Source: Ignavibacteriota bacterium (GTDB taxonomy: Bacteria; Bacteroidota; Ignavibacteria; UBA10030; SZUA-254). Taken from it: a DNA stretch of 64,000 nucleotides. Under the pieces are notes generated by a model. The model had not been told where the DNA came from and ran no database searches. It saw nothing but the letters and a program-made list of their open reading frames with translations. Positions within the stretch are counted from its first letter, which is position 1; every line of letters starts with the position of its first letter. The stretch is from assembly GCA_025358305.1 (NCBI GenBank), contig JANYJZ010000035.1:1-64000 (forward strand), given 5' to 3'. Both the position numbers and the translations under genes were made by a program. Positions 11,474-58,461 of the stretch are shown here, piece after piece.

Positions 11474-13669
11474 TCAGGCCTGCGGCGCGTCCGGCGCGGT
11501 CGCGATGGCCTTGCGGACGCTTGCGAGCATCATGTCGGTCGTGTACGGCTTGATGATGTAGTCTTGGATCCCGTCTGTACCCTTGGCGGCCTGGATCGCA
11601 GGGTCGAGGTACCCGCTCGAAATGATCGATCGCACCCCCCGTTTCACCTCCTTCATCTTGAGCAACGCATCCCATCCGTTCAATTTCGGCAGTCCGATGT
11701 CGAGGATGACGAGCTGGACCTCATCCTTGTGGGCAGTGAACGCCTCCACACCCTCCACGCCGTCAGACGCATTGATCACCTTGAACCCCTGCGATTCCAA
11801 CGATTTCGTAAGGGACGTCCGGACAAACTCCTCGTCCTCGACGACGAGGATCATCCCGCGACGGGAAGTGTCCGCCCGGGGTTGGGCGGGCACGATCGCG
11901 ACCAGACGTTGCGTGTCCTCCTCGCTCACCGGAATGCAGACCGTGAAGACCGAGCCCTCACCGAGACGGCTCTGGACATCGATGACCGCGTGGTGCGTCT
12001 GCACGATCCCGTAGACGACGGAAAGTCCCAGTCCCGTTCCTTTGCCCATCTCTTTCGTCGTAAAGAAAGGATCGAAGATGTGCCGTCGGGTCTTTTCATC
12101 CATGCCGGTCCCCGTATCGGCGACGCTCAGCCGCACGTAGCGCTGGTGGGCGACTGCGGCCGAGTGCTTCTGCCGGAGGAGCGTGCCGTCCACCTCGTCG
12201 GTCGCGATCGTGATGCGTCCGCCTGAAGGCATCGCGTCGCGGGCGTTGACGCAGAGATTGAGGAGTACCTGATGGACCTGGCTCGCGTCGGCAACGACCG
12301 GGGGGAGGTGCGGATCGAGGATGCTCGAGAACTCGATCGTCCGGGGGAAGGTCTGCGCGAGCATCGCGACGAACTCCGTCACGGCCGTGTTCACATCGAC
12401 GACGGCGAACGTGATCGGCGTCTTTCGGGCGAACGTCAGGATCTGTTGGACGACCATGGCGCCCCGGTCCACGGCCTTCGTGTTGATGCCCACGATGCGG
12501 TCGATCTGTTCGCGCGACAAATTCTGCTTCTGCAGGCCGAGTGTATTGATGAGGATGATCTGGAGGATGTTGTTCACGTCATGGGCGATGCCGCCGGCGA
12601 GCGTGCCCATGCTCTCCATCTTCTGCGATTGGCGCAGTTCCTCCTCCATCCTGCGCCGTTCCGTCATGTCGCGGCCGATGGCGACAAAGCCCCGGACCTG
12701 CCCGTCGGTCAGCATCGGTTTGACGGAAAAGTTCATCGGAACGGTCGTGCCGGACTTGGCGCGGACGCCGCATTCAAAATTCGTCTCACGGGACCCGATG
12801 AGCGATCCTTCTCGTCCATTCGGGTGGAGATTGCCCGGTTCCTCGAGAAGCTCGTCCAGGCGCCTCCCGATGAGCTCCCGTTCCTCGTAGCCGAGAATCG
12901 ACGTGACGGCGGTTCCGCGCACCATCTCGATGCGGAACGCATCGTCGGTCGTGACGAACACGTCGCTCATGGCCCCGAGGGCGGACTTGAGCTCGTCGAA
13001 GTGCGTATTGACGATGATCTTGTGCCGGAAGATGAAGTAGACGGCGATCGTCAGCGCGATCGTGCAGGAGATGTAGTACGATTCGGGTCCAAGATGGAAG
13101 ATCCCGAAGAAGACGGACTCGGTAAAGGGGCCCGGGAGGAGCATGAGAAGGAGGGCGAACGCGCCGAAGAGGAGGTTCGACCTTCCTGCCCTCTCATAAA
13201 AACCGCGGGCCACCTCGTAGAGCATGGCGATGCCGATCGTGAAGAAGATCGTCAGCCATGTGAGATAAAAGACGTATCCGCTCTGGTTGATCCCGTGCGA
13301 CTCCGACAGGGGTTCCGGAATGAGCCCGAGGAGGATCATGGCGTACCCGAAGAGCCCTGCCGTGTAGATGCTGATCGTGACCAATCGGGAATGGAGCACT
13401 TCGTAGCGCCGGACGAACAGGACGATGAAGTGGAGGAAGAAGAACGGGAAGAGGGCGTAGACGAAGTTGCTCGCCATGCCGATCCACGGCCGGTACCAGA
13501 GCCCTGGGGACGCGGTCCAGACGTAGCCAGCGACTCCCAGGAACACGAGGAGCCCGATGCAAAACGCGAAGAATTGACTCAGGACGTTGCGCGGGGATTT
13601 GGAGAGGACGATCGCGGCAAGCGCGATGTTGGCTATGGTATAGCCGATAATGATGCTCGCAAAGAACAT
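11474..13669 (-). CDS. Hybrid histidine kinase (7TM - PAS - HisKA - HATPase - REC)
   Basis: A purine-rich AGGAGG site precedes the ATG at 13669. The 731-residue protein has about seven N-terminal membrane helices (1-215) and a PAS domain (about 225-340, ending GRDMTERRRMEEEL). The HisKA phospho-acceptor is in GGIAHDVNN. The ATPase domain has the N-box NLCVNARDAM, G1 DTGTGMD and G2 GKGTGLGLS. A C-terminal receiver follows, with acidic pocket VVEDEE, phospho-acceptor VILDIGLP and conserved KPY. It senses a signal at or in the membrane and passes phosphate through its own receiver. It lies 72 bp downstream of the coiled-coil/receiver gene on the same strand, so the two probably form one signalling operon. 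Confidence 0.93.
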   Translation of the reverse strand: MFFASIIIGYTIANIALAAIVLSKSPRNVLSQFFAFCIGLLVFLGVAGYVWTASPGLWYRPWIGMASNFVYALFPFFFLHFIVLFVRRYEVLHSRLVTISIYTAGLFGYAMILLGLIPEPLSESHGINQSGYVFYLTWLTIFFTIGIAMLYEVARGFYERAGRSNLLFGAFALLLMLLPGPFTESVFFGIFHLGPESYYISCTIALTIAVYFIFRHKIIVNTHFDELKSALGAMSDVFVTTDDAFRIEMVRGTAVTSILGYEERELIGRRLDELLEEPGNLHPNGREGSLIGSRETNFECGVRAKSGTTVPMNFSVKPMLTDGQVRGFVAIGRDMTERRRMEEELRQSQKMESMGTLAGGIAHDVNNILQIILINTLGLQKQNLSREQIDRIVGINTKAVDRGAMVVQQILTFARKTPITFAVVDVNTAVTEFVAMLAQTFPRTIEFSSILDPHLPPVVADASQVHQVLLNLCVNARDAMPSGGRITIATDEVDGTLLRQKHSAAVAHQRYVRLSVADTGTGMDEKTRRHIFDPFFTTKEMGKGTGLGLSVVYGIVQTHHAVIDVQSRLGEGSVFTVCIPVSEEDTQRLVAIVPAQPRADTSRRGMILVVEDEEFVRTSLTKSLESQGFKVINASDGVEGVEAFTAHKDEVQLVILDIGLPKLNGWDALLKMKEVKRGVRSIISSGYLDPAIQAAKGTDGIQDYIIKPYTTDMMLASVRKAIATAPDAPQA

Positions 13670-13741
13670 GATCCTCCTCCTCCGTCGCCTCCGTCGTACT
13701 ACGCCTCACCAGGTAGAGAGAGCCTCGCCTTGGTGCGTTGA

Positions 13742-16700
13742 CTAATTACGCGCGAACATGCGGTACCGCTTGAGCTTTCCTTCGACGACCGCAACGAGCA
13801 TGTCGGCATCGACAGGCTTCGTCAGGTAATCGTCCACGCCCAGCTGCACGCCGGAACGTATGATGACGCCGTCTCGCAAGGAGCTCATGAACACGAACGG
13901 GATCTTCCGCAACTGCGGCTGCGTCTGGACGGCCGCGAAGAACTGGAACCCGTCGAGTTCGCTTTCGCCGAACTTGATGTCGCTCAGGATGAGGTCCACC
14001 GAGGTGGTATTCAGGTGGACGAGACCTTCGTTGACCGAGAGGGCCGGGATCACCTGGAACCCCGCGTCGGTGAGGAGGTCGTCGACCACCTTCAAGAGGA
14101 GGATGTCGTCGTCCGCGACCAGGATGCGCCCCTTGACCGCGAGACGTTCGATCGTGGAGAGGATGTACGGTTCGAGCTTCGCGCTCTCCTCAGAGTTGAT
14201 CCGGTACTTGTCCTTCAGCGCGTTCAGGGCGCTCGTATCGCGGAGGTTGATCTCGTTGCCGACGATCATTCGTTCGACCTCTGCGGTGTAGAGCTCGAGC
14301 CGCACGTCCGCTTCCATCGCAAGGTGTTCGTCGAAGGTCAGGTCGAGGAGCTCCTTGAGCGCAAGGATGTCCTTCGCTGCAGCGACGGTCGGGTCGCCGT
14401 CGGCGTAGAGTTCACGGAGCTTCTTCCGGTAGAGCTCCTGTTTTTCCGCCATCTCGACGGGAACTTTGGTCCCCATGAGATCCATTTTGTAGTCGTATTC
14501 CTTGGAGAGCTGTTCCATCCGGCGGATGAACGTCGCTTCCATTTCCTTCTGGAGCGTGCCCCGCAGGGTCCGAATGCGATCCTCCTGGGCCCCCAGCAGG
14601 GCGTCGTACGATTTCTGCAGCCGCTGCTTCTCTGCTTCGATCGACTGCGCTGCGGCCTGTTCGACCTTCTGGCGCTGCGATTCAAGGTCGGTCTGGTACT
14701 TCTGGTGGAATTCGGCCTCGAGTTCCTTCCGGAGGACCGCCTGCTGCTGACGGAAGTGGATCTCCTCCTTTGACCGGAGCGCCTTCTCCTGCTCCTCGAG
14801 TTCCACGCGGTGTGCCTCGGCAAGGGCGACGCGCTTCGCCGCGAACCCCTCCTCGATCGTCTTCTTCTGCGTGTCAAATTCCTTCTTCCACTCTTCCCGT
14901 TCCTTCGCGAGACGCCCTTCGAAGTCCTTGGAGAGCTTCTTCTGGAGCTCCTCGACCACCGACCGGTGCTGGAGGTCGCTCTGGCCGCGGACCGACTTCT
15001 CCGTCTTCTGGACGGCGTCGGCCAATTTGGACTCGAACTCCTTGTGCAGGACCTCTTCTCGGGACTTCACGGCGGCACTCTCGTGCGTCCGATGCTCCTG
15101 CAGAAGCTTTTCGATCTCCTTCTTGTGCGCGGTGCCGAGTTTTTTCTCCCGTTCCGCGTGGGCCTGTTCCATGCCCTTCTTCTGCGTCTCGTGTTCAGCG
15201 AGGAGGGTCTCGCGTTCGCGGGTACGCTGGGCTTCCAACTGGGCGGTGAGCGTCTTCTGGGACGCTTCGAGCTCCGCGCGGTGCTTCTTGTCGCTCTCTC
15301 CCTTCGCGGCTTCCCGCGCTTCCCGTACGGCATCCGCCACCCGACGATCGAACTCGGCCCGCAAGGTCTTTTCGCGTTCAGCGTGGCTCTGCTCGGCCGC
15401 TTCGAGTTCCCGCATCTGCGTCTCGGCGAGCCGGCGACGTTCTTCTCCGTGCGCGGTCTCCAAACTCGTGACCTGCGCCTCGAAGTCTCGGGCCCGGCGC
15501 TCCTGATCTGCCGCAAGCCGTGCATCGAACTCCGCCGAGAGGTGCTTGCGGACCTCATCGAGGTCTGCGCGCTGCTTTTCGTTCTCCTCGAGCTCCCGTC
15601 GATGGACCTCGGCGAGTTTCTTGCGCTCCTCCTCGTAGGATGTCTGGAGAGCGCGACGTTGTGTTTCGAGTTCCTGCTTCCATCGTTGCTGCTCGGCCGT
15701 GATGCGGCTCTCAAAATCCGCGGCGAGCTGCTTCTCCTTCTTTTCGACCTCCACCCGGCGCTGCTGTTCGCTCTCGCCCCGCACGGAATCACGCGCTTTT
15801 TTCAGGTTCTCGTCGTTCTGACGCTGCAACTCTGCACGGATCTGCAGTTCGTGTTCCCGGAGCGTTTGTTCATGCTTCTTTGCCACACCCTGCTGTGCAT
15901 CGGCGAGCGAACGTTCCTGCTCGGCGTGTGCCTTGAGAAGCTTGGACTTCTCTGTTTCGAGCGTCTGCTTCCAACGTTCGGTCTCCGCCGCGAGGCGGGA
16001 CTCGAACTCGGCGGAAAGCCGCTTCTCCACATTCTGGACCTCGGTGCGGCGATGTTCGTCGCCCTGGGCCCGAAGCGCAAGTTCGGATTCTTTGAGCTTT
16101 TCGGCAAGTTGGCGTTCGAACTCTTCGCGGAGCTGCCGTTCGCGCTCCGCGAACGTGGCCTGTTCGCGCGACGTGAGATCGGAATGTTCCCGCTTGATCT
16201 GGTCCTGGAGGCGCTTCTGTTCGCTCTGGTGGTTCGCGGAGAGTTTTGTGGCGAGATCCTGCTCGGCCTTGGTGAGCGATTCCTGATACTGTTTCTCGAG
16301 GATGGCTTCGCTCTGCGCGGCGGCTGCCTTCAACTTGCGCAAGTAGTCGCGCTCGAGTTGTTCCTTGCTTTCTGCGAGCTGGTGCTCGAACTTGGTCCGC
16401 AGCGCCTCGCGATGAAGTTCGACGTTCGCCCGTTCGTCTTGGACGAGCTTCGCGGCGTGTTCCTCCGCTTTGCGGAGTTCCGCCGTGAATCGCTCCTTGT
16501 ACTCCGCCTCAAGCTGTTGGCGGACCTGGTGCTCAAGCATCTCGCGGCTCACGTCCGGAAGGGCTGCGGCCGCCTCTTGTTTCGGTGTAGCGCGTGGCGG
16601 TTCGGGCCGCGCCGGTGCTGCGGCAGGCGAGGGGGCCGGGTCGGAGGAAGACTTGCCTTTAAAAACGCTGAGCCGCTCTTCGAACGCACGGATGAACGGG

Positions 16701-16879
16701 TTTGTCGCGTCGATGAGGCGCGCTTCTGCGATCGTCGCCGTCGCCTTTTCGAAATCGCCGTCTTTGATCAGCTTATCGGCTTGTCGAAGGAGGTTCCGGA
16801 ACACCTCTTGGTTCCCACCCCTACCAGATTGCTGGGGTGCCGGGGGGGCGTCCTTTACTTTCGGGGGGGTTACTGCCAT
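13742..16879 (-). CDS. Giant coiled-coil protein with C-terminal receiver domain
   Basis: The 1,045-residue product starts with a TPR-like helical hairpin (about 25-75, NLLRQADKLIKDGDFEKA) and a Pro/Ala linker. It then has ~700 residues of almost uninterrupted Glu/Lys/Arg/Gln heptads with recurring phrases such as HAEREKTLRAEFD and KKLGTAHKKE: a very long coiled coil. After a helical region around 830-910 comes a receiver domain with acidic cluster VADDD, phospho-acceptor LILSDIKFG, MSSLRDG and LTKPVD. A receiver at the end of a long rod suggests phosphorylation-controlled assembly or localisation. The hybrid kinase 72 bp downstream is the likely phosphate donor. No known family of this full architecture comes to mind. 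Confidence 0.85.
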   Translation of the reverse strand: MAVTPPKVKDAPPAPQQSGRGGNQEVFRNLLRQADKLIKDGDFEKATATIAEARLIDATNPFIRAFEERLSVFKGKSSSDPAPSPAAAPARPEPPRATPKQEAAAALPDVSREMLEHQVRQQLEAEYKERFTAELRKAEEHAAKLVQDERANVELHREALRTKFEHQLAESKEQLERDYLRKLKAAAAQSEAILEKQYQESLTKAEQDLATKLSANHQSEQKRLQDQIKREHSDLTSREQATFAERERQLREEFERQLAEKLKESELALRAQGDEHRRTEVQNVEKRLSAEFESRLAAETERWKQTLETEKSKLLKAHAEQERSLADAQQGVAKKHEQTLREHELQIRAELQRQNDENLKKARDSVRGESEQQRRVEVEKKEKQLAADFESRITAEQQRWKQELETQRRALQTSYEEERKKLAEVHRRELEENEKQRADLDEVRKHLSAEFDARLAADQERRARDFEAQVTSLETAHGEERRRLAETQMRELEAAEQSHAEREKTLRAEFDRRVADAVREAREAAKGESDKKHRAELEASQKTLTAQLEAQRTRERETLLAEHETQKKGMEQAHAEREKKLGTAHKKEIEKLLQEHRTHESAAVKSREEVLHKEFESKLADAVQKTEKSVRGQSDLQHRSVVEELQKKLSKDFEGRLAKEREEWKKEFDTQKKTIEEGFAAKRVALAEAHRVELEEQEKALRSKEEIHFRQQQAVLRKELEAEFHQKYQTDLESQRQKVEQAAAQSIEAEKQRLQKSYDALLGAQEDRIRTLRGTLQKEMEATFIRRMEQLSKEYDYKMDLMGTKVPVEMAEKQELYRKKLRELYADGDPTVAAAKDILALKELLDLTFDEHLAMEADVRLELYTAEVERMIVGNEINLRDTSALNALKDKYRINSEESAKLEPYILSTIERLAVKGRILVADDDILLLKVVDDLLTDAGFQVIPALSVNEGLVHLNTTSVDLILSDIKFGESELDGFQFFAAVQTQPQLRKIPFVFMSSLRDGVIIRSGVQLGVDDYLTKPVDADMLVAVVEGKLKRYRMFARN

Positions 16880-46305: not shown

Positions 46306-49300
46306 CTATTTCGTAAGAATCATTTTCTTCGTCTGGACGAGGTTGTCCCCGTCGAGGAGCCTATAGAGATAGACCCCCGTGGCGACCGGGAGGTGATTGT
46401 CGTCGACGCCCTCCCAGACGAACGTGTGGATGCCTTGGTCGTACGCACCGTCGGCGAGCGTCGCGACGCGCTGCCCGAGGATCGAGTAGACGTCTAGCCG
46501 GATCCGGGATTCATGCGGGAGGCTGACGCTGATCGACGTCGTCGGGTTGAACGGGTTCGGGAAGTTCTGCGACAGTTCGAACGTCGTCGGGAGCTGCTTC
46601 GCGATCTCGCCCCGGACGAAGTCCTTCGTCCCGACGATCATCGTGAACGGCATCTTCGGGCCGATGCTCGTGAACGTGTACGTCGGGTGGGCCCGCAGAT
46701 CGTACGGCGTGGTGTTGTACGCGTTCACCAGGACGACCTCCAACCCGGCCGGGATCTGGTCGATGCCGCGGAAGGTGATCGAACCCTTCGTGCCGGCCGT
46801 CTTTGAGACCTCGAACTGCCAGGTCTGACCTTCGCCGATGCCGGGACGGACATCCGAGCTGAACCGCGGGAACCTCTTGTCCCACTCGGGGCGGTTGAAG
46901 TAGAGGAACCCCTGGTCGAGGAAGAGCGGCGGCTTGTGGCTGTCGTTCTCGTCGAGGCCCGGTCTCGCGGAGGAGGAGACCCCGATGAAGTTGTCGGGAT
47001 CCTCGTTGATGTCGGACCGGAGCGAGAGCTGCACGCGCCAGCCGTTCGCCTGCGCCATCGCGTGGGGGGGAGCGGGGCCGAACGGATAAGGCATCTTGAG
47101 GAGCCCGAGTCCCGAGCCGTTGAAGAAGTAGTACCCGCCGAACGGCTCGAGCGTGGTCGCCGTGACGAACGACCCGCCGTACGCGTAGAGCGCCGTCGCG
47201 GCAGGGAGGCCGTTGAGGTCGAGCACCGCGGCCCAATCGACGTTCTTGTCGAACGGGTTCGCGATGATGTTCCAGCCGTCATGGAGCGTGATGGGATACG
47301 AGGCCTCGACCGTATCCAGGACCGGCATCGTCATGTTCGTGACGAAGCTGAAATCCTTCTTCTTCAGGAGCCAGTAGCCGTGCCCGGTGATGAGCCGGGA
47401 GAGCGGCGTGAGCTCTTCGAGATAGTTCTCCGCGGAACCGTTGTCCCAGAACATGCGCCAGTCGGCGGGCGGGGTCCCCGGGAGGTTGTCCGTGAGCCGT
47501 TTCGTGGAGTCGACGATGCCCGGGTTGCTCACGAGCCGGTAGAGCGTCGAGAGCTGCGGGTCGGTCGGGAATGAAACGACCGTCGACATCGGCACGATGA
47601 GCGGGAGCGCGCCCGAGTAGATGGCGAACGTCCCGGTCTCGCCGTGGACGCTCGTATCGGAGGCCGACTCGATCCGGATCTTGCAGGAGTTGCCGAACGG
47701 CGTCGCATCCGGCAGCCTCCAGCTGTACGATCCCGAGTTCGGTATCCCGGTGAGGAGGGTCGCGTACGTCGTCCCACTGTTCGTCGAAAGCCGTACGTTG
47801 ACGCTGCCCGTGATGTCGATGCTCGTCCACTGGAGCGTCTGGACGAACCGCGTCACCCACGGCTTGGCGGGAAGGACGCCGCTCACCGACTTCGGCCGCG
47901 TCGTGAAGTTCCTCGCACTGGAGAACGTCGTGATGTTTCCTCCGACCTTCGCCTTGACGCGCCAGAAGTACATCGTCTTGTTCTGGAGCGCCGGCACCCG
48001 CATCGTCGAATCGGCGATCGATGCGCTGTCATAGACGGCATTCGTAAAGAGCGAGTCGGTCGCCACCTGGAGGATGTAGGCGGTCGCGCCCGGATAGGCG
48101 TGCCAGCTCAGGACCGGCGAGGGGGCAATGCCGGATGCGCCGTCGGGAATGCCCGACAAGCTCGGCGGAGGCAGAAGCGTGCCGAAACTCGCGACCTCCA
48201 CGATCCAGTTCTGCATGATGACCGAAGCAGCACTGTTGGCGCCCGTGTACGAGCCCGTCCCCGAGCCCTGCCACTCGATGAATCCGAACCCGCCGTTCGG
48301 CGCCGCGTTGATGTGCACCGTGTCGCCGGCGTTGTACCACGCTCCGTCGGGGCTGACGGTCCCGCCGCTGCCGGCGACCGTGAAGAGGTAGTGCTGGGTC
48401 GTGAAGGAGGCCGAAATGACGGAATCCTTCACCACCGTGATCGTATGCGAGATGGCGCCGCTGTCGCTCCACGTGTTCCAGAGGTACTGCGTCGGGGCGA
48501 CGAGCTGCTGCGGCGAGGTCGTGCCGACCGTATGGGCCGAATTGAGGAGCCAGTCGAACGACATCGGCGCGGTATACGTTGAATCATCCACGACGATAGA
48601 ACGGCCCGTCGGACTCGTCTGCAGCGTTATCCGAGCCCCCGGCGAGAAATTGCCGGTGACGCTCTTCGGGGTGTTCATGATGACCTTCGTCGGGTTTAGG
48701 TTCGTGACGACCGACCCGGTCCAGGCAGTGAACGCGAAGCCGCTGTTCGCTGTGGCGGAGAGGGTCGCCGTGTCGCCGACGTTGTAGAACGTCTGCCCGG
48801 AGGGCGAGATCGAACCGCCGAAGGGCGGGTTCGCGTTCGTCGTGAGGCCGAACTGCGTCTTGAAGTGCGCGGTGAACGTCGAGTCGTGCGTCCCGACCTC
48901 GATGATGTGCGTCCGCCCGGCGCTGTCGCTCCAGTCGGTCCAAAGGTACCGCGTCCCGCCTGCGACCACCTGGATGCTGTCGGCCGATATGGTGTGCACC
49001 GATCCAGGCAAGAAGCTGAACGTGAAGGTCGACGTGAAGAGGGCGCCGTCGACGAGGAATGTCCGGCCCGCCGGGTTCGTCTTCACCGTGATGAGAACGG
49101 CGTTCTGGCCGAAGTTCACCGCCTCCGTGATGGGGCTGACCATGAAGAGCGTCCCGGGGTTGTTGCCCCCGGAATAGGACCCTGAGCCGCTGCCGCTCCA
49201 GCTGAGGAACCCGTAGCCGTTTGCCGGCGTGGCCGTAATGACGACGGCTTCGCCGCTGTTGTGCCACCCGCTCGCCGGCTGGATCGATCCGCCGAGGCTA

Positions 49301-52300
49301 GAGTTCATCGTCAGGAAGTACTGGGTCGTGAAATTGGCGGTGTAGATCTTCGGGACCGACGGGGCGACGACGTGCGTGGCCGCGCCCGAGTCGCTCCAGC
49401 TCGACCAAACGTAGCGCGTCCCGGCCCCGCCGTTCTGTATCGTGTCGGCCTGGATGGTGTGGTTCGAGTTTGCCAGCCAGCTGAACGTCTGGGGAGCGGT
49501 ATAGGCCGTGCCGTCGACGATGATCGTCCGGGCTGGCGGCGACGTCGTCACGGTGACCTGGACGTTTCCGAGCGTGAACGAGGCGGACTCCGTGATGGGG
49601 CCCGTCATCGTCACGTTCGCCGGGTTGAGAAGGCCGCTATAGGACCCGGCGCCTGAGCCGACCCACGACGTGAAGGAATATCCGCCCGACGGCGTTGCCG
49701 ACACCGGGACGGTCTGCGCGCTGTCGATCCAGCTGCTCGCCGGACTGGCGGTGCCGCCGGTGCCCGCGTTCATCGTGAGGAAGAACTGCGACTTGAGCTT
49801 CACAGTGAAGGTGGTATCCTTGACGAGCGTGACGCTGTGCGTGCGCGCGCCGGAGTCGCTCCAGCTCGAGTAAATGTAGCGCGTGCTGGCCGCCCCGTTT
49901 TGGACGCTGTCAGAGGAGATCGTGTGGCTTGTGCCGCTGGTGAAGGTGAAGGTCTGCGGACTGGTGTAGATCGTTCCGTCGACCGTCACGGAGCGTCCCG
50001 GAGGGTCGGACTGGACGGTCATCTGGACCGGGAAGAGCGTGAAGCTGCCGGTCTCGCTCAACGGCCCGTTCATCGTGACCGAAGAGGGGTTTGCCGGCCC
50101 GGTGTAGGAGCCGGAGCCAGATCCTGCCCAGGTGCTGAAGCTGTAGCCGAGGTTCGGCGTCGCCGTGATCGGTACGTTCGAACCGCTGTTGAACCAGTTG
50201 GTGGCTGGGGAGACCGACCCGCCGGTCCCCGCGCCTGTCGTCAGAAGGTACTGGGTCTTGAAACTCGCCACGAGGATCGAATCGCTTGTCGGCGTGAAGA
50301 AGTGCGTGATGGCGCCCGAGTCGCTCCAGCTGGCCCACGTGTAACGTGTGCCGACGGCTCCTGACTGGGGATCGGTGACGATCGCCAGGGTCAGACCGTT
50401 GCCCGGCGCAACGCTGAAGGTCTGCGGCAACGTGTAATCGCTGCCGTTGACGCGGTAGGCCCGGTTGGCCGGGTTGGTGCCGACGGTGATCTGGTATGGG
50501 TTCTGGGCGAAGTTCGCCGTCTCCGTGATCGGGCTGTTCATGAAGAGCGTGCCCGGGTTATTGCCGCCGGAGTAGGAGCCGACGCCGCCGCCGTTCCAGT
50601 TGAGGAACCCGTAGCTGCTCGCCGGCGTGGCCGTAATGAGCACGGACTCGCCGCTGTTGTGCCACCCGCTCGCCGGCAGGACCGTCCCGCCGACGTTCGT
50701 ATTCATCGTCAGGAAGTACTGGATCGTGAAATTCGCACTGTAGGTCTTCGGGACCGACGTCGCTACGATGTGCGCGGCCGCGCCTGAGTCGCTCCAGTTC
50801 GACCAGGCGTAACGCGTCCCGGCCGCGCCGTTCTGGATCGTGTCGGTCTGGATCGTGTGGTTCGAGTTCGCCAGCCAGCTGAACGTCTGGGGGGCGGTAT
50901 AGGTCGTGCCGTCGACGATGATCGTCCGGGCTGCGGGCGACGTCGTCACGGTGACCAGGACGTTCCCGAGCGTGAACGAGGCGGACTCGGTGACGGGGCC
51001 CGTCATCGTGACTCCTGCCGGGTTGAACGAGCCGCTGTAGGAACCTGCACCCGAGCCGGCCCACGACGTGAAGGAATATCCGCCCGACGGCGTCGCCGAC
51101 ACCGATACGGTCTGCGCGCTGTCGAGCCAATTGCTCGCCGGACTGACGGTGCCGCCGGTGCCTGCGTTCATCGTGAGGAAGAACTGCGTCTTGAGCTTCA
51201 CGGTGAAGGTGGTATCCTTCACGACAGTGACACTATGGGACCGCGCTCCGGAGTCGCTCCAGCTCGCGTAGATGTAGCGTGTGCCGGCCGCCCCGTTTTG
51301 GACGCTGTCAGAGGAGATCGTGTGGCTTGTGCCGCTGGTGAAGGTGAAGGTCTGCGGACTGGTGTAGATCGTGCCGTCGACCGTCACGGAGCGCCCCGGG
51401 GGATCGGAGTGGACGGTCATCTGGACCGGGAAGAGCGTGAAGCTGCCGGTCTCGCTCAACGGCCCGTTCATCGTGACCGAAGAGGGGTTTGCCGGCCCGG
51501 TATAGGAACCGGATCCCGTGCCGCTCCATGTGCTGAAGCTGTAACTGACGTTCGGCGTCGCCGTGATCGGTACGCTCGAGCCGCTGTTGAACCAGTTGGT
51601 GGCAGGGGAGACCGACCCGCCGGTCCCCGCGCCCATCGTCAGGAGATACTGCGTATTGAAACTCGCCACGAGAATCGAATCGCTTGTCGGCGTGAAGAAG
51701 TGCGTGATGGCGCCCGAGTCGCTCCAGCTGGCCCACGCGTACCGAGTACCGACGGGTCCCGACTGGGGATCGGTGACGATCGCCAGGGTCAGACCGTTGC
51801 CCGGCGCTACGCCGAAGGTCTGCGGCAACGTATAATCGCTGCCGTTGACGCGGTAGGCCCGGCCGGCCGGGTTGGTGCCGACGGTGATCTGGTACGGGTT
51901 CTGGGCGAAGTTCGCCGTCTCCGTTATGGGGCTGAGCATGAAGAGCGTCCCGGGGTTGTTGCCGCCGGAGTACGAGCCGACCCCGATGCCGCTCCAGTTA
52001 AGGAACCCGAAGTTGTTCGTCGGCGTGGCCGAGATGACCACGGACTCGCCGCTGTCGTGCCACCCGCTTGCCGGCAGGACCGTCCCGCCGACGTTCGTGT
52101 TCATCGTCAGGAAGTACTGCGTGGTGAAGTTCGCGGTGAACGTCGTGTTGACCAAGGGGGCGACGGTATGGAGCCGCGCTCCCGCGTCGCTCCAGTTCGA
52201 CCAGACGTAGCGCGTCCCGGCCGAGCCGTTCTGAAGGGTGTCGCTCTGGATCGTGTGGTTCGAGTTGGCCACCCAGCTGAACGTCTGGGGTGCGGTGTAC

Positions 52301-55300
52301 GTGATACCGTCGACGATGATCGTCCGGGCTGCGGGCGATGTCGTCACGGTGACGGAGATCGTGTTCGGCGAGAAGTTGGCAGTTTCCGTGATGGGACTGT
52401 TCATCGTCACCGACCCAGGATTGGAAGCGCCTGAGAAGGAGACGGTCCCCGAACCGATCCAGTTGAGGAAGCTGTAGCCGGTCCCCGGTATCCCGGTGAT
52501 CGGCACGACCTGGGCGCTGTTGAACCAGCCGCTCGTCGGCGTGGCGGTGCCGCCCGTACCGGCGTTCATCGTGAGGAAATACTGCGTGGCGAACGATGCG
52601 GTGAACGTCGTATTGACGAGCGACGAAACCGAGTGCGAGAGGGCCCCCGCGTCATTCCATCCGGTCCAGTCGTACCGTGTTCCCGCCACTCCGTTCTGAA
52701 GACTGTCGGAGGCGATCGTGTGGCTCACGTTCGCCACCCACGTGAAGGTCTGGGGGGAGGTGTATGTCGTCCCGTCGACGGTGATCGAACGCCCGACGGG
52801 CACGGTCGTGAAGGTGACTGTGATGTTGTTCGGCGAGAAGTTCGCCGTTTCGGTGATGGGGCCGTTCATCGTCACAGAAGGGGAGGCGAGCCCGCCCGTA
52901 TAGGAGCCGGTCCCTGAGCCGGTCCAGTTCGCGAAGGAATATCCTGTCCCCGGTGTCGCGGAAATGGGCACGGACTGGCCGCTGTTGAACCAGTTGCTGG
53001 CCGGCGACGACGTGCCGCCCGTTCCCGCCGCCATCGTGAGATAATACTGCGTGCTGAAATTCACCGTGAACGTCGTGTCGCTCACCGGCGCCACCGCATG
53101 CGACTGTGCGCCGGCGTCGCTCCACGAGGTCCAGTTGTACCGCGTGAGCGTGTCGCCCTGGGGCGAGACCGTGTTGATGGTGTGCGACGCCGTCGCGGAC
53201 CAGACGAACGCCTGCGAATTCGTGTAGGTCGTTCCGTCGACGATGAACGTGCGCCCTGCCGGCGACGACTTCACCGTGACGTTGATGGGGAAGAGCGTGA
53301 AGCTCGCATTCTCGGTGATCGCTCCGTTGACCGTGACGGAAGAGGCGTTCACGGGGCCCGTGTACGAGCCGGTGCCCGAACCCGTCCATCCGGCGAACGA
53401 GTACCCCACCGTCGGGGTCGCGGAGATCGGTACCGACGCGGCGGTGTCGCGCCAGCTGCTGACCGGAAGGACGGTGCCTCCCGTCCCCGCGTTCATCGTG
53501 AGGAAGAACTGCCGGCGGAACACCGCCGTATAGGTTGTGTTCGAGAACGGCACAAGAAAGGAGTGCGTACGGGTGTCTCCGTCGCTCCAGTTGTTCCAGA
53601 TGTAGCGCGATGTCCCGAGCTGGCTCTGGATGCTGTCCGTCGAGATGCTATGCACCGAACCCGGCAGGAAGCTGAACGTCTGCTGAATGGTAAAGGGCGA
53701 ACTGTCGACGTAGAAGACCTGTCCCGGGGGGGACGTCGTGACGCTGATGAGGACGTTGTTGAGCGTAAAGTTCGCCGTTTCGCTGATCGGCCCGCCCATG
53801 AAGACGCTGCCCGGGTTATTGCCGCCGATGACAGCGCCTGGCCCTGAACCGCCCCAGAAGTTGAAGCTGTAGCCGCTCGAGGGGATCGCGGTGATCTGGA
53901 CGAAGGCGGCGCTGTCCTGATACCCTGTGGCGGGCGTTGTCGTGCCGCCTATGTTCGCGTTGACGGTCAGGAGGAACTGCGTCTTGAACGTCGCCGTGTA
54001 CGTCGTGTTGACGAGCGGCGTGACGTTATGGGACCGCGCGCCGGCGTCGTTCCAGCTGTTCCAGGCGTAGCGGATGCTCCCCGCGGCGGTCTGGAGGCTG
54101 TCGGTGGCGATCGAATGGGTCTGGGTGGCGGTCCAGGTGAAGGTCTGGGGGCTTGTGAAATTCACGCCGTCGACTGTGATCGTCTTTCCCGAGGGGACGG
54201 TCTGCACGTTGATCGTGAGCGTCGCGGGTACGAACGTCACGGAGATCGTGTGGTTCGTCGTGACGCTGTCGAACGGATACGAGACGACGGCTCCCTGCGA
54301 TATGCCGTCCACCAGCACGCTCGATACGGCGAACCCCGCGTTCGGGATCATGGTGAAGGTCTGGCTCCCGCCGCTGATGACGTTGACGGCGCCGGTTGGG
54401 GAGATGGTCCCGTTCGCACCGGAGGAGGCGGTGATCGTGTAGGTCGTGAGCGTGAAGGCGGAACTCACGGCTGCTGTGAGGCCCGACGCCGAGGCGGTGA
54501 TGTTCTTCACGCCGGCCTGGTTGACGCTCAGGTTGCTGAACGTCGCGAGGCCTGAAGCGTTCGTGAGCTGCGTGGTCGTGCCGGTGAGCGCACCGGTGCC
54601 GGTGGAGAGGCTCATCGTGACCGAGATGCCCGCGGTGGAGACGTTGTTGCCGGCAACATCGCGGAGCTGCACGGAGACGGCCGGGGCAATGAACGCGCCG
54701 GCAAGACCGTTCGAGGGCTGCTGGACGAACGCGAGCTGCGTGGCGGCCCCCGCACTGACCGTGATCGTTCCGGAATTCACCGGAGTGAGGGCTGCGGAAA
54801 CGACGTGGATCTGCGCGGTCCCGGTGAGATGTCCCGTGAGGATAGCGCTCTTCACATCGCCGTTCGGGACGAGATCACCCGCGGCGACGCCGCCCGTCGG
54901 GCTTGCCAGCGACCAGGAGTCTGCCGCGACGTTCGAGACGAAGTTCCCCGATCCGTCCCGTGTGATCGCGTAGACGGTGATCGCGCTACCCGATACGAGG
55001 CTCTGGACTGGGACGACGGAGCCGGAACCGTCCGGCGCCGTCTCGACGCGGACGGTCGTCGCTGTGCCCGCCGCGATCGTAAAGCTGCTGCTCACCGCCG
55101 AAGCGAGCCCGCCGCTCGATGCGGTGAGGCCCTTCGTGCCGACGAGGTTGATGCTGAGATCATTGAAGGTCGCAAGGCCTGCCGCGCTCGTAATCCGCGT
55201 GGTTGTGCCGGAGAGCGTCCCCGTCCCGGAGGATAGGGCCGTGGTAATCGAGACCCCCGACGCGGAGATGTTGTTCCCGAAGTTGTCCTGGATCTGGACC

Positions 55301-58300
55301 GTGACCGCGGGCGCGAGTGCCACGCCTGGAAGGGCCGAGGTCGGCTGCTGGAGGAACACGAGCTGTGAGGCGGAGGCGGCCAAGATCGTGAACGCGCTGC
55401 TGATCGCGGAGGTGAGCCCCGTACTCGACGCTGTGAGGTTCTTCGCGCCGGCGAGGTTAACGCTCAGGTCGTTGAAGGTCGCAAGGCCGGAGGCGTTGGT
55501 CAGCTGGGTGGCCGTCCCGGAGAGGACGCCGGTGCCGCTCGTGATCGTCAGCGTCACGCCAATCCCCGGCGACGAGATGCTGTTCGCGAACGCGTCGCGA
55601 AGTTGGACGGTGACCGCCGGCGTGATGACCGAACCCGCGGTCGTGCTTGTCGGCTGCTGAACGATCGCCACCTGCGTCGCCGCCGCCGTGTTGATCGTGA
55701 ACGGGCTGCTGACCGCGGAAGTGAGCCCGGAGCTCGCCGCCGTGAGGTTCTTGGAGCCGGCCAGGTTGATGCTGAGCGTGCTGAAGGTCGCGAGGCCCGA
55801 TGCGTTCGTCGGGACGGACGTCGTCCCGGAGAGCGTGCCGGTGCCTGTCGAGAGCGACATTGTGACCGAGATCCCCGATGTTGAAACGTTGTTGCCGAAC
55901 TGATCGCGGAGCTGGACGCTCACGGCCGGAGCGATGGTCGCGCCTGCCGTCGTGTTCGTCGGCTGCTGGACGAACGCAAGATCGGCCGCACCAGCGGCGC
56001 CGATGGTGAAGGCGCTGCTGATCGCGGACGTGACGCCTGCGCTCGCCGCCGTGAGGTTCTTGGAACCGGTGAGGTTGACGCTGATGTCATTGAAGGTGGC
56101 GAGTCCGCCCGCGTCGGTGTTTTGGGTCAGCGTGCCGCCGAGCGTGCCGCTCCCGGTTGAGAGCGAAAGGGCTACGGGGACGCCGATGCTCGCTATGGTG
56201 TTGCCGAGGGCGTCCTCGAGCTGCACGGTGATGCTCGGCGAGAGGACGACACCTGCGGTCGCGTTGGTCGGCTGCTGGATGAAGACGACCTTGGAGGCGC
56301 TGCCCGCGGAGATCGCAAAGGCGTTGCTGATCGCGGAGGTCAGTCCTGCGCTCGTTGCGGTGATGTTCTTCGAGCCGGCAAGATTGATGCTCAACGTACT
56401 GAACGTCGCCAGGCCCGACGCGTTCGTCGTTTGCGTGACCGTGCCGCTCAGCACGCCCGTACCAGAGGTCAGGGCAACCGAGACGGAGGTCCCGGAAGTG
56501 GAGATGTTGTTTCCGAGAGCGTCTTGGAGCTGGAGGGTCACGGCGGGAGCGATGACAGCGCCGGCCGCCGCGTCGGAAGGCTGTTGGACAAAGACGATCT
56601 TGCTCACCGTCGCAGCGGAGATCGTGAACGCGTTGCTGATGGCCGACGTGAGGCCGGAACTGGATGCGGTCAGGTTCTTCGAGCCCGCAAGGTCGACGCT
56701 GAGATCATTGAACGTCGCGAGGCCGCCGGCGCCCGTATTTTGGGTCAGCGTGCCGCCGAGCGTGCCCGTGCCGGTCGTCAGAGCGACCGTCACCGGTATG
56801 CCGGATGTAGCGATGGCGTTGCCGAGCGCGTCCTCGACTTGGACGGTGACCGCGGGAGCAAGCGTCAGGCCTGCGGTGCGGTTCGTCGGCTGCTGTAGAA
56901 AGACGACCTTCGTGGCCGTTCCGGCCGAGACGGTGAACGTGTTGCTTACATTCGACGTCAGCCCTGCACTGCTCGCGGTGAGGTTCTTGGAACCAATGAG
57001 GTTGATGCTGAGACCGCTGAATGTCGCGAGACCGGTTCCGTCCGTCGTCTGGGCGCCGCCGCCGCTCAAGACACCCGTGCCGGTCGAAAGCGTGAGGGAT
57101 ACCGATGTGCCCGAGGTAGGAACGCTGTTCCCAAACGTGTCTTCAAGCTGCACGGTGACCGGCGGAGCGATGGTGGCCCCCGCGGAGACCGCCGTCGGAC
57201 CCTGAATGAACGCGACCTTTGACGCGGCGGCGTGGGTAATGTTGAACGAGGTACTCGCCTTCGTTCCGAGTCCGCCCCCCGTCGCAGACGCCGTCAAGAT
57301 CTTCGCGCCCGCGAGGTCAACGTTCAGATCATTGAACGTGGCCACGCCGGAGGCGTTCGTGCTCCGCGAAACAGTGCCGGACAGCGTGCCGGTCCCTGAT
57401 GTGAGCGACATGTTGACCGTGACGCCGGAGGCCAAGACGTTGTTGCCCAATGCATCCTGGACGTTGACGGTGATCGATGGCGAAATGTTCACACCTGCAA
57501 CGGCGTCGGTCGGCTGCTGCGTGAACGCAATGGCGCTGGCCGGTCCTGCGGAGATCGTGAACGCGTTGCTCACGGCGGATGAGAGGCCGGCGCTCGAGGC
57601 CGTGAGGTCCTTGCTGCCCGGCAGGTTGATGCTGAGTCCGGTGAACGTCGCGATGCCGGAACCGTTCGTCACGGCCGTCAGCGTCCCGTTTAGCGGTCCG
57701 GTGCCCGTCGTCAGGGCGAGCGAAATATTCACTCCCGCCGTGGAGACCCCCCCGTTCAGCGAGTTCCGGAGCTGGACGGTGATGGCCGGCGAGATCGAGG
57801 CGCCGGCGACGGTATTCGTCGGCTGCTGGATGAAGGCGACTTGGGTGGCGGAGAGAAGCGACGCGTTGGCAAGCTGATTCAGGTGTCCGGTGGAATCCTC
57901 GATCTCGGTGTTCAGGCCGCCGACATAGGCGAACACTTTCGTGAACGGATCGGAAGAGTTTTTCCATGCGAGGTTCGCGGGCTGGTCCTCGAACGAAATG
58001 CTCGCGGTGAGCCGAAATCGCCCGACGCGCAGGCCGGGGCTCGCCGGGATGATCGTGCCGCTGCCGGCGCCGGGAGGGACGCGGGGATTGATCCGGATCT
58101 CCGAGCCGACGACCGACATCGTCGTGGGCTGCTGCGAACTGTTGAGATCGGAGCTGCCTGCGTTCATCGACACCGAGATCGTCCCCGCCGTGATGAGGGG
58201 GTCGAAGGTAAGTATCGGCTGGATGCTCGCGAGTTCGAACGGTGTGCCGCCCGTCCGCTGGAGCACGATGTCGAACTCATAGACCGTGCTGCTGACGATG

Positions 58301-58395
58301 ACGTCATTCTTCAGGATGAGTTCGTACGTCGGGTTCTGGGCGAGTGCCAGTTGCGACAGCACGACGAGCATCAACAGGGTCATGATCGATTTCAT
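46306..58395 (-). CDS. Giant T9SS-exported repeat adhesin
   Basis: The ATG at 58395 follows AAGAGG and gives ~4,029 residues with signal peptide MKSIMTLLMLVVLSQLALAQ. Order of domains: a ~150-residue N-terminal beta-domain (NPTYELILKNDVIV...), about ten Ig-like repeats of ~100 residues that begin QQPTN/QQPS and end NAFTIS (to about residue 1,310, one divergent unit in between), then 13 modules of ~155 residues. Each module has an InlB-B-like half (W..SG..V.ITATP..GYSF) and a VDG..YT.PQTF half. An FN3-like region (LSWHAYPGATAYILQVATD) and a T9SS tail (LSQNFPNPFNPTTSISVSLP ... TKKMILTK) complete it. It should be a very long surface fibre for adhesion or cell-cell contact. Confidence 0.93.
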   Translation of the reverse strand: MKSIMTLLMLVVLSQLALAQNPTYELILKNDVIVSSTVYEFDIVLQRTGGTPFELASIQPILTFDPLITAGTISVSMNAGSSDLNSSQQPTTMSVVGSEIRINPRVPPGAGSGTIIPASPGLRVGRFRLTASISFEDQPANLAWKNSSDPFTKVFAYVGGLNTEIEDSTGHLNQLANASLLSATQVAFIQQPTNTVAGASISPAITVQLRNSLNGGVSTAGVNISLALTTGTGPLNGTLTAVTNGSGIATFTGLSINLPGSKDLTASSAGLSSAVSNAFTISAGPASAIAFTQQPTDAVAGVNISPSITVNVQDALGNNVLASGVTVNMSLTSGTGTLSGTVSRSTNASGVATFNDLNVDLAGAKILTASATGGGLGTKASTSFNITHAAASKVAFIQGPTAVSAGATIAPPVTVQLEDTFGNSVPTSGTSVSLTLSTGTGVLSGGGAQTTDGTGLATFSGLSINLIGSKNLTASSAGLTSNVSNTFTVSAGTATKVVFLQQPTNRTAGLTLAPAVTVQVEDALGNAIATSGIPVTVALTTGTGTLGGTLTQNTGAGGLATFNDLSVDLAGSKNLTASSSGLTSAISNAFTISAATVSKIVFVQQPSDAAAGAVIAPAVTLQLQDALGNNISTSGTSVSVALTSGTGVLSGTVTQTTNASGLATFSTLSINLAGSKNITATSAGLTSAISNAFAISAGSASKVVFIQQPTNATAGVVLSPSITVQLEDALGNTIASIGVPVALSLSTGSGTLGGTLTQNTDAGGLATFNDISVNLTGSKNLTAASAGVTSAISSAFTIGAAGAADLAFVQQPTNTTAGATIAPAVSVQLRDQFGNNVSTSGISVTMSLSTGTGTLSGTTSVPTNASGLATFSTLSINLAGSKNLTAASSGLTSAVSSPFTINTAAATQVAIVQQPTSTTAGSVITPAVTVQLRDAFANSISSPGIGVTLTITSGTGVLSGTATQLTNASGLATFNDLSVNLAGAKNLTASSTGLTSAISSAFTILAASASQLVFLQQPTSALPGVALAPAVTVQIQDNFGNNISASGVSITTALSSGTGTLSGTTTRITSAAGLATFNDLSINLVGTKGLTASSGGLASAVSSSFTIAAGTATTVRVETAPDGSGSVVPVQSLVSGSAITVYAITRDGSGNFVSNVAADSWSLASPTGGVAAGDLVPNGDVKSAILTGHLTGTAQIHVVSAALTPVNSGTITVSAGAATQLAFVQQPSNGLAGAFIAPAVSVQLRDVAGNNVSTAGISVTMSLSTGTGALTGTTTQLTNASGLATFSNLSVNQAGVKNITASASGLTAAVSSAFTLTTYTITASSGANGTISPTGAVNVISGGSQTFTMIPNAGFAVSSVLVDGISQGAVVSYPFDSVTTNHTISVTFVPATLTINVQTVPSGKTITVDGVNFTSPQTFTWTATQTHSIATDSLQTAAGSIRYAWNSWNDAGARSHNVTPLVNTTYTATFKTQFLLTVNANIGGTTTPATGYQDSAAFVQITAIPSSGYSFNFWGGSGPGAVIGGNNPGSVFMGGPISETANFTLNNVLISVTTSPPGQVFYVDSSPFTIQQTFSFLPGSVHSISTDSIQSQLGTSRYIWNNWSDGDTRTHSFLVPFSNTTYTAVFRRQFFLTMNAGTGGTVLPVSSWRDTAASVPISATPTVGYSFAGWTGSGTGSYTGPVNASSVTVNGAITENASFTLFPINVTVKSSPAGRTFIVDGTTYTNSQAFVWSATASHTINTVSPQGDTLTRYNWTSWSDAGAQSHAVAPVSDTTFTVNFSTQYYLTMAAGTGGTSSPASNWFNSGQSVPISATPGTGYSFANWTGSGTGSYTGGLASPSVTMNGPITETANFSPNNITVTFTTVPVGRSITVDGTTYTSPQTFTWVANVSHTIASDSLQNGVAGTRYDWTGWNDAGALSHSVSSLVNTTFTASFATQYFLTMNAGTGGTATPTSGWFNSAQVVPITGIPGTGYSFLNWIGSGTVSFSGASNPGSVTMNSPITETANFSPNTISVTVTTSPAARTIIVDGITYTAPQTFSWVANSNHTIQSDTLQNGSAGTRYVWSNWSDAGARLHTVAPLVNTTFTANFTTQYFLTMNTNVGGTVLPASGWHDSGESVVISATPTNNFGFLNWSGIGVGSYSGGNNPGTLFMLSPITETANFAQNPYQITVGTNPAGRAYRVNGSDYTLPQTFGVAPGNGLTLAIVTDPQSGPVGTRYAWASWSDSGAITHFFTPTSDSILVASFNTQYLLTMGAGTGGSVSPATNWFNSGSSVPITATPNVSYSFSTWSGTGSGSYTGPANPSSVTMNGPLSETGSFTLFPVQMTVHSDPPGRSVTVDGTIYTSPQTFTFTSGTSHTISSDSVQNGAAGTRYIYASWSDSGARSHSVTVVKDTTFTVKLKTQFFLTMNAGTGGTVSPASNWLDSAQTVSVSATPSGGYSFTSWAGSGAGSYSGSFNPAGVTMTGPVTESASFTLGNVLVTVTTSPAARTIIVDGTTYTAPQTFSWLANSNHTIQTDTIQNGAAGTRYAWSNWSDSGAAAHIVATSVPKTYSANFTIQYFLTMNTNVGGTVLPASGWHNSGESVLITATPASSYGFLNWNGGGVGSYSGGNNPGTLFMNSPITETANFAQNPYQITVGTNPANRAYRVNGSDYTLPQTFSVAPGNGLTLAIVTDPQSGAVGTRYTWASWSDSGAITHFFTPTSDSILVASFKTQYLLTTGAGTGGSVSPATNWFNSGSNVPITATPNLGYSFSTWAGSGSGSYTGPANPSSVTMNGPLSETGSFTLFPVQMTVQSDPPGRSVTVDGTIYTSPQTFTFTSGTSHTISSDSVQNGAASTRYIYSSWSDSGARTHSVTLVKDTTFTVKLKSQFFLTMNAGTGGTASPASSWIDSAQTVPVSATPSGGYSFTSWVGSGAGSYSGLLNPANVTMTGPITESASFTLGNVQVTVTTSPPARTIIVDGTAYTAPQTFSWLANSNHTIQADTIQNGGAGTRYVWSSWSDSGAATHVVAPSVPKIYTANFTTQYFLTMNSSLGGSIQPASGWHNSGEAVVITATPANGYGFLSWSGSGSGSYSGGNNPGTLFMVSPITEAVNFGQNAVLITVKTNPAGRTFLVDGALFTSTFTFSFLPGSVHTISADSIQVVAGGTRYLWTDWSDSAGRTHIIEVGTHDSTFTAHFKTQFGLTTNANPPFGGSISPSGQTFYNVGDTATLSATANSGFAFTAWTGSVVTNLNPTKVIMNTPKSVTGNFSPGARITLQTSPTGRSIVVDDSTYTAPMSFDWLLNSAHTVGTTSPQQLVAPTQYLWNTWSDSGAISHTITVVKDSVISASFTTQHYLFTVAGSGGTVSPDGAWYNAGDTVHINAAPNGGFGFIEWQGSGTGSYTGANSAASVIMQNWIVEVASFGTLLPPPSLSGIPDGASGIAPSPVLSWHAYPGATAYILQVATDSLFTNAVYDSASIADSTMRVPALQNKTMYFWRVKAKVGGNITTFSSARNFTTRPKSVSGVLPAKPWVTRFVQTLQWTSIDITGSVNVRLSTNSGTTYATLLTGIPNSGSYSWRLPDATPFGNSCKIRIESASDTSVHGETGTFAIYSGALPLIVPMSTVVSFPTDPQLSTLYRLVSNPGIVDSTKRLTDNLPGTPPADWRMFWDNGSAENYLEELTPLSRLITGHGYWLLKKKDFSFVTNMTMPVLDTVEASYPITLHDGWNIIANPFDKNVDWAAVLDLNGLPAATALYAYGGSFVTATTLEPFGGYYFFNGSGLGLLKMPYPFGPAPPHAMAQANGWRVQLSLRSDINEDPDNFIGVSSSARPGLDENDSHKPPLFLDQGFLYFNRPEWDKRFPRFSSDVRPGIGEGQTWQFEVSKTAGTKGSITFRGIDQIPAGLEVVLVNAYNTTPYDLRAHPTYTFTSIGPKMPFTMIVGTKDFVRGEIAKQLPTTFELSQNFPNPFNPTTSISVSLPHESRIRLDVYSILGQRVATLADGAYDQGIHTFVWEGVDDNHLPVATGVYLYRLLDGDNLVQTKKMILTK
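49110..51905. repeat. Tandem duplication of a 1,398-bp three-module block inside the adhesin gene
   Basis: Landmarks recur exactly 1,398 bp (466 codons) apart, for example at 50041 and 51439 and at 50491 and 51889, and the protein modules 6-8 and 9-11 are nearly identical. The two blocks lie at about 49,110-50,507 and 50,508-51,905. The limits are approximate because neighbouring modules are also similar. Confidence 0.85.
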
Positions 58396-58461
58396 AGAGA
58401 GCCTCTTCATAAAGGATTCCAACTCTTGCTTCACATGTTCCCGGGTTTGCATTCCGGTGTG

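What the first reader, a model, noticed from the sequence alone, without database searches (positions are those of the whole stretch)
11474..16879. Rod-like coiled coil carrying a receiver, paired with a hybrid kinase
About 700 residues of coiled coil (of the order of 100 nm if extended) sit between a TPR-like head and a C-terminal receiver, and the next gene is a membrane hybrid kinase. A phospho-switch on a filament-forming protein is not a standard two-component output and may control cell shape, polarity or gliding.
Basis: partly seen in the sequence, partly recalled or inferred. Interest (0 to 1): 0.5.

Follow-up and report, generated by a model that had tools for sequence, protein, structure and literature searches.

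The report
Phospho-switched rod protein with kinase
The bacterium carries a long rod-shaped protein whose tail is a normal phosphate-accepting signalling domain, next to a membrane sensor kinase; in relatives the rod is built on an unusual 15-residue repeat and is often exactly the same length, which points to a signal-controlled scaffold rather than a gene switch.

Summary
On the minus strand a 1045-aa protein (16879..13742) has a proline-free, charged stretch of 698 residues and a C-terminal receiver with every catalytic residue; a 731-aa multi-TM PAS hybrid kinase follows after 72 bp. (1) The rod is not a heptad coil: hydrophobic residues repeat every 3.73-3.75 residues (15/4, pentadecads), which predicts a right-handed coiled coil. 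In 15 of 23 measurable relatives it is exactly 315 residues (21 x 15) between flanking motifs; the window's copy is expanded to 672. (2) A ~100-aa helical module, weakly like ENT/Tic110, lies between rod and receiver. The long-rod form occurs in families f1 and f2 of the window's order and in f12 of its class. The receiver is kept while its partner kinase is swapped: 7TM hybrid, RodZ-linked hybrid, or phoR-phoU. Pairing with this kinase is real but not obligate. Best reading: a phospho-regulated, non-DNA-binding rod scaffold that works like FrzS but is not one. A cell-shape link is weak (RodZ, SPOR neighbours); gliding is unsupported. Phosphotransfer, filaments and localisation were not testable.

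The parts
13742..16879 (-). Coil-receiver protein, 1045 aa
   Evidence: ORF, translation
16664..16813 (-). N-terminal TPR-like helical hairpin, aa 23-72
   Evidence: Pattern seen by eye in the relatives printed (L058 lacks its N-terminus); no Pfam TPR match in the window protein; 'TPR-like' is inferred
16556..16663 (-). Pro/Ala-rich linker, aa 73-108
   Evidence: Proline positions
14462..16555 (-). Proline-free rod, aa 109-806; 672 residues (aa 126-797) between the conserved flanking motifs; hydrophobic period 3.73
14138..14449 (-). Tandem helical module (EEH..LE repeats), aa 811-914, five predicted helices
   Evidence: alignment A3, AlphaFold2 pLDDT 86, PDB profile hit to Tic110 E 6e-6
13784..14125 (-). 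Receiver domain, aa 919-1032; D923/D924, D967, S999, K1021 present
   Evidence: PF00072 E 1.5e-15, residues, model with Z about 20 to PleD/NtrX receivers
13979..13981 (-). Codon of the predicted phospho-acceptor Asp967
   Evidence: Position
11474..13669 (-). Membrane hybrid histidine kinase, 731 aa, 72 bp downstream
13010..13660 (-). N-terminal multi-TM sensor region of the kinase (about seven hydrophobic segments, aa 4-220)
   Evidence: hydropathy; a match in 18 of 60 genomes at E<=0.001
11516..12973 (-). Kinase PAS, DHp (His363), ATPase and receiver (Asp657), aa 233-718
   Evidence: Pfam, residues
16956..16985 (-). Promoter-like TTGACA-18-TATATT about 80-100 bp upstream of the coil-receiver ATG
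   Evidence: 1 found, 0.7 expected in shuffles; weak evidence

Best explanation
The protein is a response regulator whose output is its own rod, not DNA binding. Shown by sequence: a short TPR-like hairpin, a pentadecad (15/4) helical rod, a tandem helical module and a fully canonical C-terminal receiver. Inferred: two or more chains form a right-handed coiled-coil rod of about 47 nm in the common 315-residue form and about 100 nm here. The N-terminal hairpin holds one partner, and the helical module plus receiver hold another. A membrane hybrid kinase phosphorylates Asp967, directly from its own His363, because no Hpt protein was found in the genome. Phosphorylation changes how the receiver/module end pairs or what it binds, and so recruits or releases a partner at a set distance. 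In the window the likely donor is the adjacent 7TM hybrid kinase. A second candidate is the RodZ-linked GAF-PAS hybrid kinase elsewhere in the same genome. The target is unknown; the envelope or cell-shape machinery is the best guess but weakly supported.
For: Canonical receiver residues in 26 of 26 long-coil members and a receiver fold in the model. No other Pfam domain at E up to 1. Pentadecad period in all 23 coils with both flanking motifs (peak 3.715-3.765, power 26-51, shuffle maxima at most 13.4). Rod length is exactly 315 residues in 15 of these 23, and 18 standard coils align with only 5 internal gap columns at 21-29% mean identity between families. Kinases sit beside the gene in three different arrangements: 7TM hybrid in 5 of 12 f1 loci, another hybrid in 6 of 7 f4 loci (GAF-PAS by Pfam in the one scanned), phoR-phoU in 9 of 10 f12 loci. 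No Hpt hit, and no HPTransfase hit over its cut-off, in the window genome. The kinase carries PAS, HATPase_c and a HisKA region.
Against: No kinase like the window's was found beside the gene (BLAST, over 60 bits) in 4 of 4 f2 loci, 7 of 12 f1 loci and 6 of 6 f6 loci. In f4 and f6 relatives the linker is short, and in f9 short or of another type, so the rod is not needed for the receiver's core role. Six of 55 relatives with a receiver have a changed active site. Several core positions of the rod are often Glu or Arg, so a stable coiled coil is not certain. No oligomer, phosphotransfer or localisation data exist here.
Confidence: 0.55

Rival explanations
1. The rod protein is a phospho-controlled part of the cell-shape or division machinery: it tethers RodZ/MreB or septal factors to a membrane kinase and its rod sets a spacing.
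For: In f4 the short relative, its kinase and a rodZ-like gene are consecutive: both RodZ Pfam domains over cut-off in L065, L070 and L071; in L072 and L085 HTH_25 over cut-off but RodZ_C just below; L063 by matching N-terminus only. In the window genome the same kinase still precedes rodZ. A SPOR-domain gene is divergent from the coil gene in 4 of 12 f1 loci. The genome has MreB and RodZ.
Against: In f4 the protein beside rodZ has no long coil. In the window the coil gene is not near rodZ. In f12 it sits in a phosphate operon. The SPOR gene cut by a contig end in L046 gave no SPOR hit. Gene order can be incidental.
Confidence: 0.2
2. It is a phosphate sink or scaffold for kinases: the receiver drains phosphoryl groups from whichever kinase it is expressed with, and the rod only concentrates or localises it.
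For: Three different kinase partners in three lineages; in f12 a complete phoB-phoR pair already exists upstream, so the extra receiver would compete with PhoB.
Against: A sink needs no conserved 315-residue rod or N-terminal hairpin.
Confidence: 0.15
3. The helix is not a coiled coil but a long amphipathic or charged single helix that lies on a membrane or another filament.
For: Highly charged composition, about 20-29% VILMFYW in the 26 long coils, and Glu/Arg common at some core positions.
Against: A coherent 15/4 stripe through 310-672 residues and near gap-free length conservation fit a coiled coil better. Other charged helices in the same DNA (11 stretches) show other periods, such as 3.465, 3.665 and 3.675.
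Confidence: 0.15

Closest known systems
FrzS (and AglZ) of Myxococcus xanthus
   Same: Receiver domain plus long coiled coil, no DNA-binding output; works in polarity and motility (PMC1974792, passages read)
   Different: FrzS has its receiver at the N-terminus, and that receiver lacks the phospho-Asp and Mg2+ binding; its coil is 258 residues. Here the receiver is C-terminal and canonical, with a pentadecad rod and an extra helical module
FilP and Scy of Streptomyces
   Same: Long coiled-coil rods with non-heptad repeats in cytoskeletal or polar proteins (PMC9858780, passages read)
   Different: They use hendecads and have a DivIVA-like N-terminal motif; no receiver is described in the passages read. 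Here pentadecads and a receiver
RomR of Myxococcus
   Same: Response regulator that controls polarity through protein binding (PMC12719032 and PMC3441718, search listings only)
   Different: Recalled, not from a call: its receiver is N-terminal and the rest is Pro/Glu-rich, not a long rod
CckA-type hybrid kinases
   Same: Kinase core scores best to a CckA model
   Different: Scores of the two CckA models are 301 and 243 bits, far below their 1000-bit cut-offs; no Hpt hit and no HPTransfase hit over cut-off was found in the genome
ENT domain / Tic110 helical repeats
   Same: Helical module resembles them: Tic110 E 6e-6 by profile, ENT over Pfam cut-off in relative L064, 48-50 columns at 1.0-1.2 A to ENT structures
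   Different: In the window's module only Tic110 appears in Pfam, below cut-off. Foldseek E-values are 5.8-9.7 and Z 5.8-6.5, no better than unrelated rows

Membership tests
Phosphorylatable response regulator | Receiver fold with acidic pair, Asp, Ser/Thr, Lys | tested here: met
   PF00072 E 1.5e-15; D923, D924, D967, S999, K1021; fold
Phosphorylatable response regulator | Accepts phosphate from a cognate kinase | not testable with these tools
   Needs biochemistry
FrzS/AglZ family | N-terminal receiver that lacks phosphorylation residues, followed by a coiled coil | tested here: not met
   Receiver is C-terminal and canonical
Canonical (heptad) coiled-coil filament protein such as crescentin (named from memory) | Hydrophobic period 3.5 | tested here: not met
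   Power at 3.5 is 0.0-1.4 in the 23 coils measured
Pentadecad right-handed coiled coil | 15-residue repeat with hydrophobics at a, d, h, l (period 3.75) | tested here: met
   Register profile .78/.55/.61/.49 at positions 0, 4, 7, 11 in 18 aligned coils, not including the window's own; window period 3.73; definition in PMC9858780
Pentadecad right-handed coiled coil | Supercoil handedness and oligomer state | not testable with these tools
   No structure of the rod; inferred from period only
DivIVA/FilP/Scy superfamily | DivIVA-like N-terminal motif | tested here: inconclusive
   No DivIVA match in the Pfam scan of the whole protein or of the N-terminal hairpin; no motif search was made
TPR protein | TPR repeats over threshold | tested here: not met
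   No TPR hit in the window protein; TPR_14 only E 0.071 in relative L062
Hybrid histidine kinase | DHp His, HATPase_c, attached receiver | tested here: met
   HATPase_c E 4e-22, receiver E 4.8e-18, HisKA E 0.0024 (below cut-off); His363 in GGIAHDVNN
CckA-ChpT phosphorelay | ChpT-like phosphotransferase | tested here: not met
   PF10090: three matches below cut-off and none over it in the window genome, one of them the window's kinase; control rang in Caulobacter only

The most novel reading that the evidence does not exclude
A phospho-switched molecular ruler: a right-handed pentadecad coiled-coil rod of fixed length (21 repeats, about 47 nm; expanded to about 100 nm here) that holds a membrane kinase and a target such as the RodZ/MreB complex at a set distance, with its receiver deciding whether the bridge is made. 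The rod and receiver stay while lineages swap the kinase.
Probability: 0.12. Interest if true: 0.75.

Novelty: new variant of a known kind. Interest (0 to 1): 0.52.

Why it matters
Response regulators known to act by scaffolding through a long coil are few (from memory), and the best studied, FrzS, has a receiver that cannot be phosphorylated (PMC1974792). Here a family joins a canonical receiver to a long rod on a rare repeat whose length is exactly the same in members of three bacterial families. That gives a direct test of whether phosphorylation can switch a rod, and long natural pentadecad sequences for structural work.

Tried and rejected
Heptad coil: rejected by the period. Hendecad: power at 3.667 is low in the long coils, while two module-bearing relatives without this rod show 3.665-3.675 (L207, L209). 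The 11 comparison stretches are few, and at least five of them are in relatives that carry the helical module, so they are not an independent control; the shuffles are. Strict multiples of 15 in the expanded rods: only partly true. The extra lengths over 311 are 210, 223, 296 and 361 residues, and only 210 is an exact multiple (from the distances). Fold search with the whole C-terminal model returned only receivers in the rows shown, so the helical module was predicted alone; its fold matches are weak. The search for related loci in genome contigs used receiver patterns; of the 80 loci kept only L085 matched over most of the helical module (residues 45-274), the rest mainly the receiver. A GldM search found nothing, but its controls rang nowhere, so it says nothing about gliding. 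Paper searches: 'pentadecad' with coiled coil and right-handed (5 papers), 'hendecad' with '15-residue' or with bacteria, 'right-handed coiled coil' with response regulator (none), coiled-coil receivers (15 of 21 listed) and output domains (12 of 92 listed). None of the listed titles and abstract starts describes this family; I read passages only of PMC9858780, PMC1974792 and PMC12632262. Orthologous kinases that read as two ORFs (L046, L055) were not joined or mended.
Full report
What is there. On the minus strand, 16879..13742 encodes 1045 aa and 13669..11474 encodes 731 aa, 72 bp downstream. Pfam finds only a receiver in the first (E 1.5e-15, aa 919-1032). In the second it finds PAS, HATPase_c and a receiver, with HisKA below its cut-off. 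The kinase's first 220 residues hold about seven hydrophobic segments; His363, and Asp657 of its own receiver, are in place. Upstream genes on the same strand are an aminotransferase and an amino acid permease; downstream, a Sll1717-type ATPase gene is convergent. A promoter-like TTGACA-18-TATATT lies at 16985-16956, weak evidence that the pair is its own two-gene operon.

Anatomy. Aligning relatives shows four blocks: an N-terminal helical hairpin with a TPR-like pattern (aa 23-72, by eye), a variable middle, a ~100-aa tandem helical module (aa 811-914) and the receiver with a basic tail. AlphaFold2 gives it five helices (pLDDT 86). A profile search finds Tic110 in the PDB at E 6e-6, and Pfam's ENT passes its cut-off in one of five relatives scanned (L064). 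Structural matches are weak: the ENT rows score no better than unrelated ones. The receiver part of the C-terminal model matches PleD and NtrX receivers at Z about 20 over 128-129 residues.

The rod. Twenty-six family members have a proline-free run over 300 residues (12 from family f1, 4 from f2, 10 from f12). In all 23 that carry both flanking motifs, hydrophobic residues repeat every 3.715-3.765 residues. Peak power is 26-51, against at most 13.4 in 200 shuffles each; power at the heptad period 3.5 is 0.0-1.4. Folded on 15, the hydrophobic frequency in 18 standard coils is .78.55.61 (.36 next to it) and .49 at positions 0, 4, 7 and 11, and .06-.14 elsewhere. This is the a-d-h-l pattern of pentadecads, for which PMC9858780 gives a right-handed supercoil (passages read). 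The distance between the flanking motifs is exactly 315 residues (21 x 15) in 15 of 23, 311 or 310 in 3, and 521, 534, 607, 607 and 672 (the window) in 5; in 3 of the 26 the motif pattern did not match. The 18 standard coils have only 5 internal gap columns, although mean identity between families is 21-29%. Among 11 other charged helical stretches in the same DNA, none shows a strong peak near 3.75; examples are 3.465 (heptad-like, L208), 3.665 (L207) and 3.675 (L209), all in module-bearing relatives. The window's rod repeats a ~100-aa block (offsets 97, 105, 159, 264 and 361, identity up to 0.55 over 40 residues), and its 15/4 phase is steady at both ends with a shift between about 336 and 560, which explains its 3.73 instead of 3.75. 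Handedness, oligomer state and length in nm (about 0.15 nm per residue) are inference.

Spread. The helical module is found in 49 of 149 genomes sampled from the class; in 11 of these the match covers only one of the two repeats. In the phylum sample it is found in 22 of 296, 19 of the 22 being in the same class. The long-coil form was seen in f1, f2 and f12 (10 of the 11 f12 genomes with a match were fetched). In f4 and f6, and in three f9 loci, the same hairpin, module and receiver are joined by a short linker; two f9 relatives are long with a different middle. Some relatives have no receiver (L200 by Pfam; L209, L214, L216 by eye).

Phosphorylation. All five catalytic receiver positions (Asp or Glu allowed in the acidic pair) are kept in 26 of 26 long-coil members. 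In the full set, 61 rows passed the gap filter (one, L214, was dropped) and 49 kept all five; of the 12 others, 6 have no receiver and 6 have a changed one. Among the changed is the window genome's own paralogue (L039), with Glu in place of the phospho-Asp; its relative L205 has the same change.

Partners. The 7TM hybrid kinase follows the coil gene in 5 of 12 f1 loci (window, L044, L045, L046, L055) and in 0 of 4 f2 loci; in L046 and L055 it reads as two ORFs. Its sensor is found at E below 1e-50 in 13 of the 17 genomes with a close coil-receiver orthologue (E below 1e-60), and in 2 of the other 43. This association is confounded by descent. In f4, 6 of 7 loci have a different hybrid kinase directly downstream (GAF and PAS by Pfam in L065). 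A rodZ-like gene follows in at least 5: both RodZ domains over cut-off in L065, L070 and L071, RodZ_C just below cut-off in L072, and by N-terminal sequence in L063. In the 6 f6 loci no kinase was found beside the gene. The f4-type kinase is present in 51 of 60 relatives. In the window's own genome it is 50% identical to the f4 copy and precedes rodZ (Pfam) and a gene that looks by eye like ligA, but with no receiver gene beside it. In f12, 9 of 10 loci have phoR and phoU directly upstream (phoB seen in 8 of those 9); the tenth begins at a contig end (domains scanned in L187). So the receiver protein persists while its kinase changes. That supports a need for phosphorylation and argues against one fixed kinase. 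No Hpt (PF01627) and no HPTransfase over cut-off (PF10090) was found in the window genome, so transfer straight from the kinase's histidine is the simplest route; this is inference.

Function. I favour a phospho-regulated rod scaffold. Shape or division has neighbour hints only: RodZ, and a SPOR-domain gene divergent from the coil gene in 4 of 12 f1 loci (Pfam in L043, L044, L045, L047; the fragment in L046 gave no hit). MreB and RodZ exist in the genome. Gliding was not supported; the one search was uninformative. FrzS is the nearest known design, but it has an N-terminal receiver that cannot be phosphorylated (PMC1974792, passages), so this is not a FrzS.

Noticed in passing
L221:1629-6900 (window genome, contig 3): Hybrid kinase (f4 type), rodZ and a ligA-like gene in a row without the receiver gene that precedes them in family f4: a second candidate kinase for the coil-receiver
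   Followed up: partly
L039:5937-7091 and L205:6514-7662: Paralogues of the family whose receiver has Glu at the phospho-Asp position, perhaps a fixed 'on' form
   Followed up: no
L187, L188, L190-L195, L199 (family f12): Coil-receiver gene directly downstream of phoR-phoU (phoB seen in 8 of 9), which suggests an extra branch of phosphate signalling
   Followed up: partly
L211:1961-2836, L212:2252-3121: Proteins that look by eye like ExbB/TolQ/MotA channels (not scanned) carry a single EEH repeat of the helical module at their C-terminus
   Followed up: no
L208:838-4152, L213:2263-5139 (family f9): Relatives of about 1000 aa whose receiver is degenerate; L208 has a heptad-like coil stretch (period 3.465), so the rod type and phospho-site changed in this lineage
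   Followed up: no
L200:7552-11563 (window genome, contig 4): An 861-aa protein with a charged N-terminal part and TPR repeats lies directly upstream of a hairpin-module paralogue that has no receiver by Pfam
   Followed up: no
window 46306-58452 (-): 4048-aa ORF with 14 InlB-like repeat stretches and sub-threshold FlgD_ig and Por_Secre_tail matches: probably a giant surface protein
   Followed up: no
L046:3453-5451, L055:7010-9207: The orthologous 7TM kinase reads as two ORFs in two genomes, either assembly error or decay
   Followed up: no
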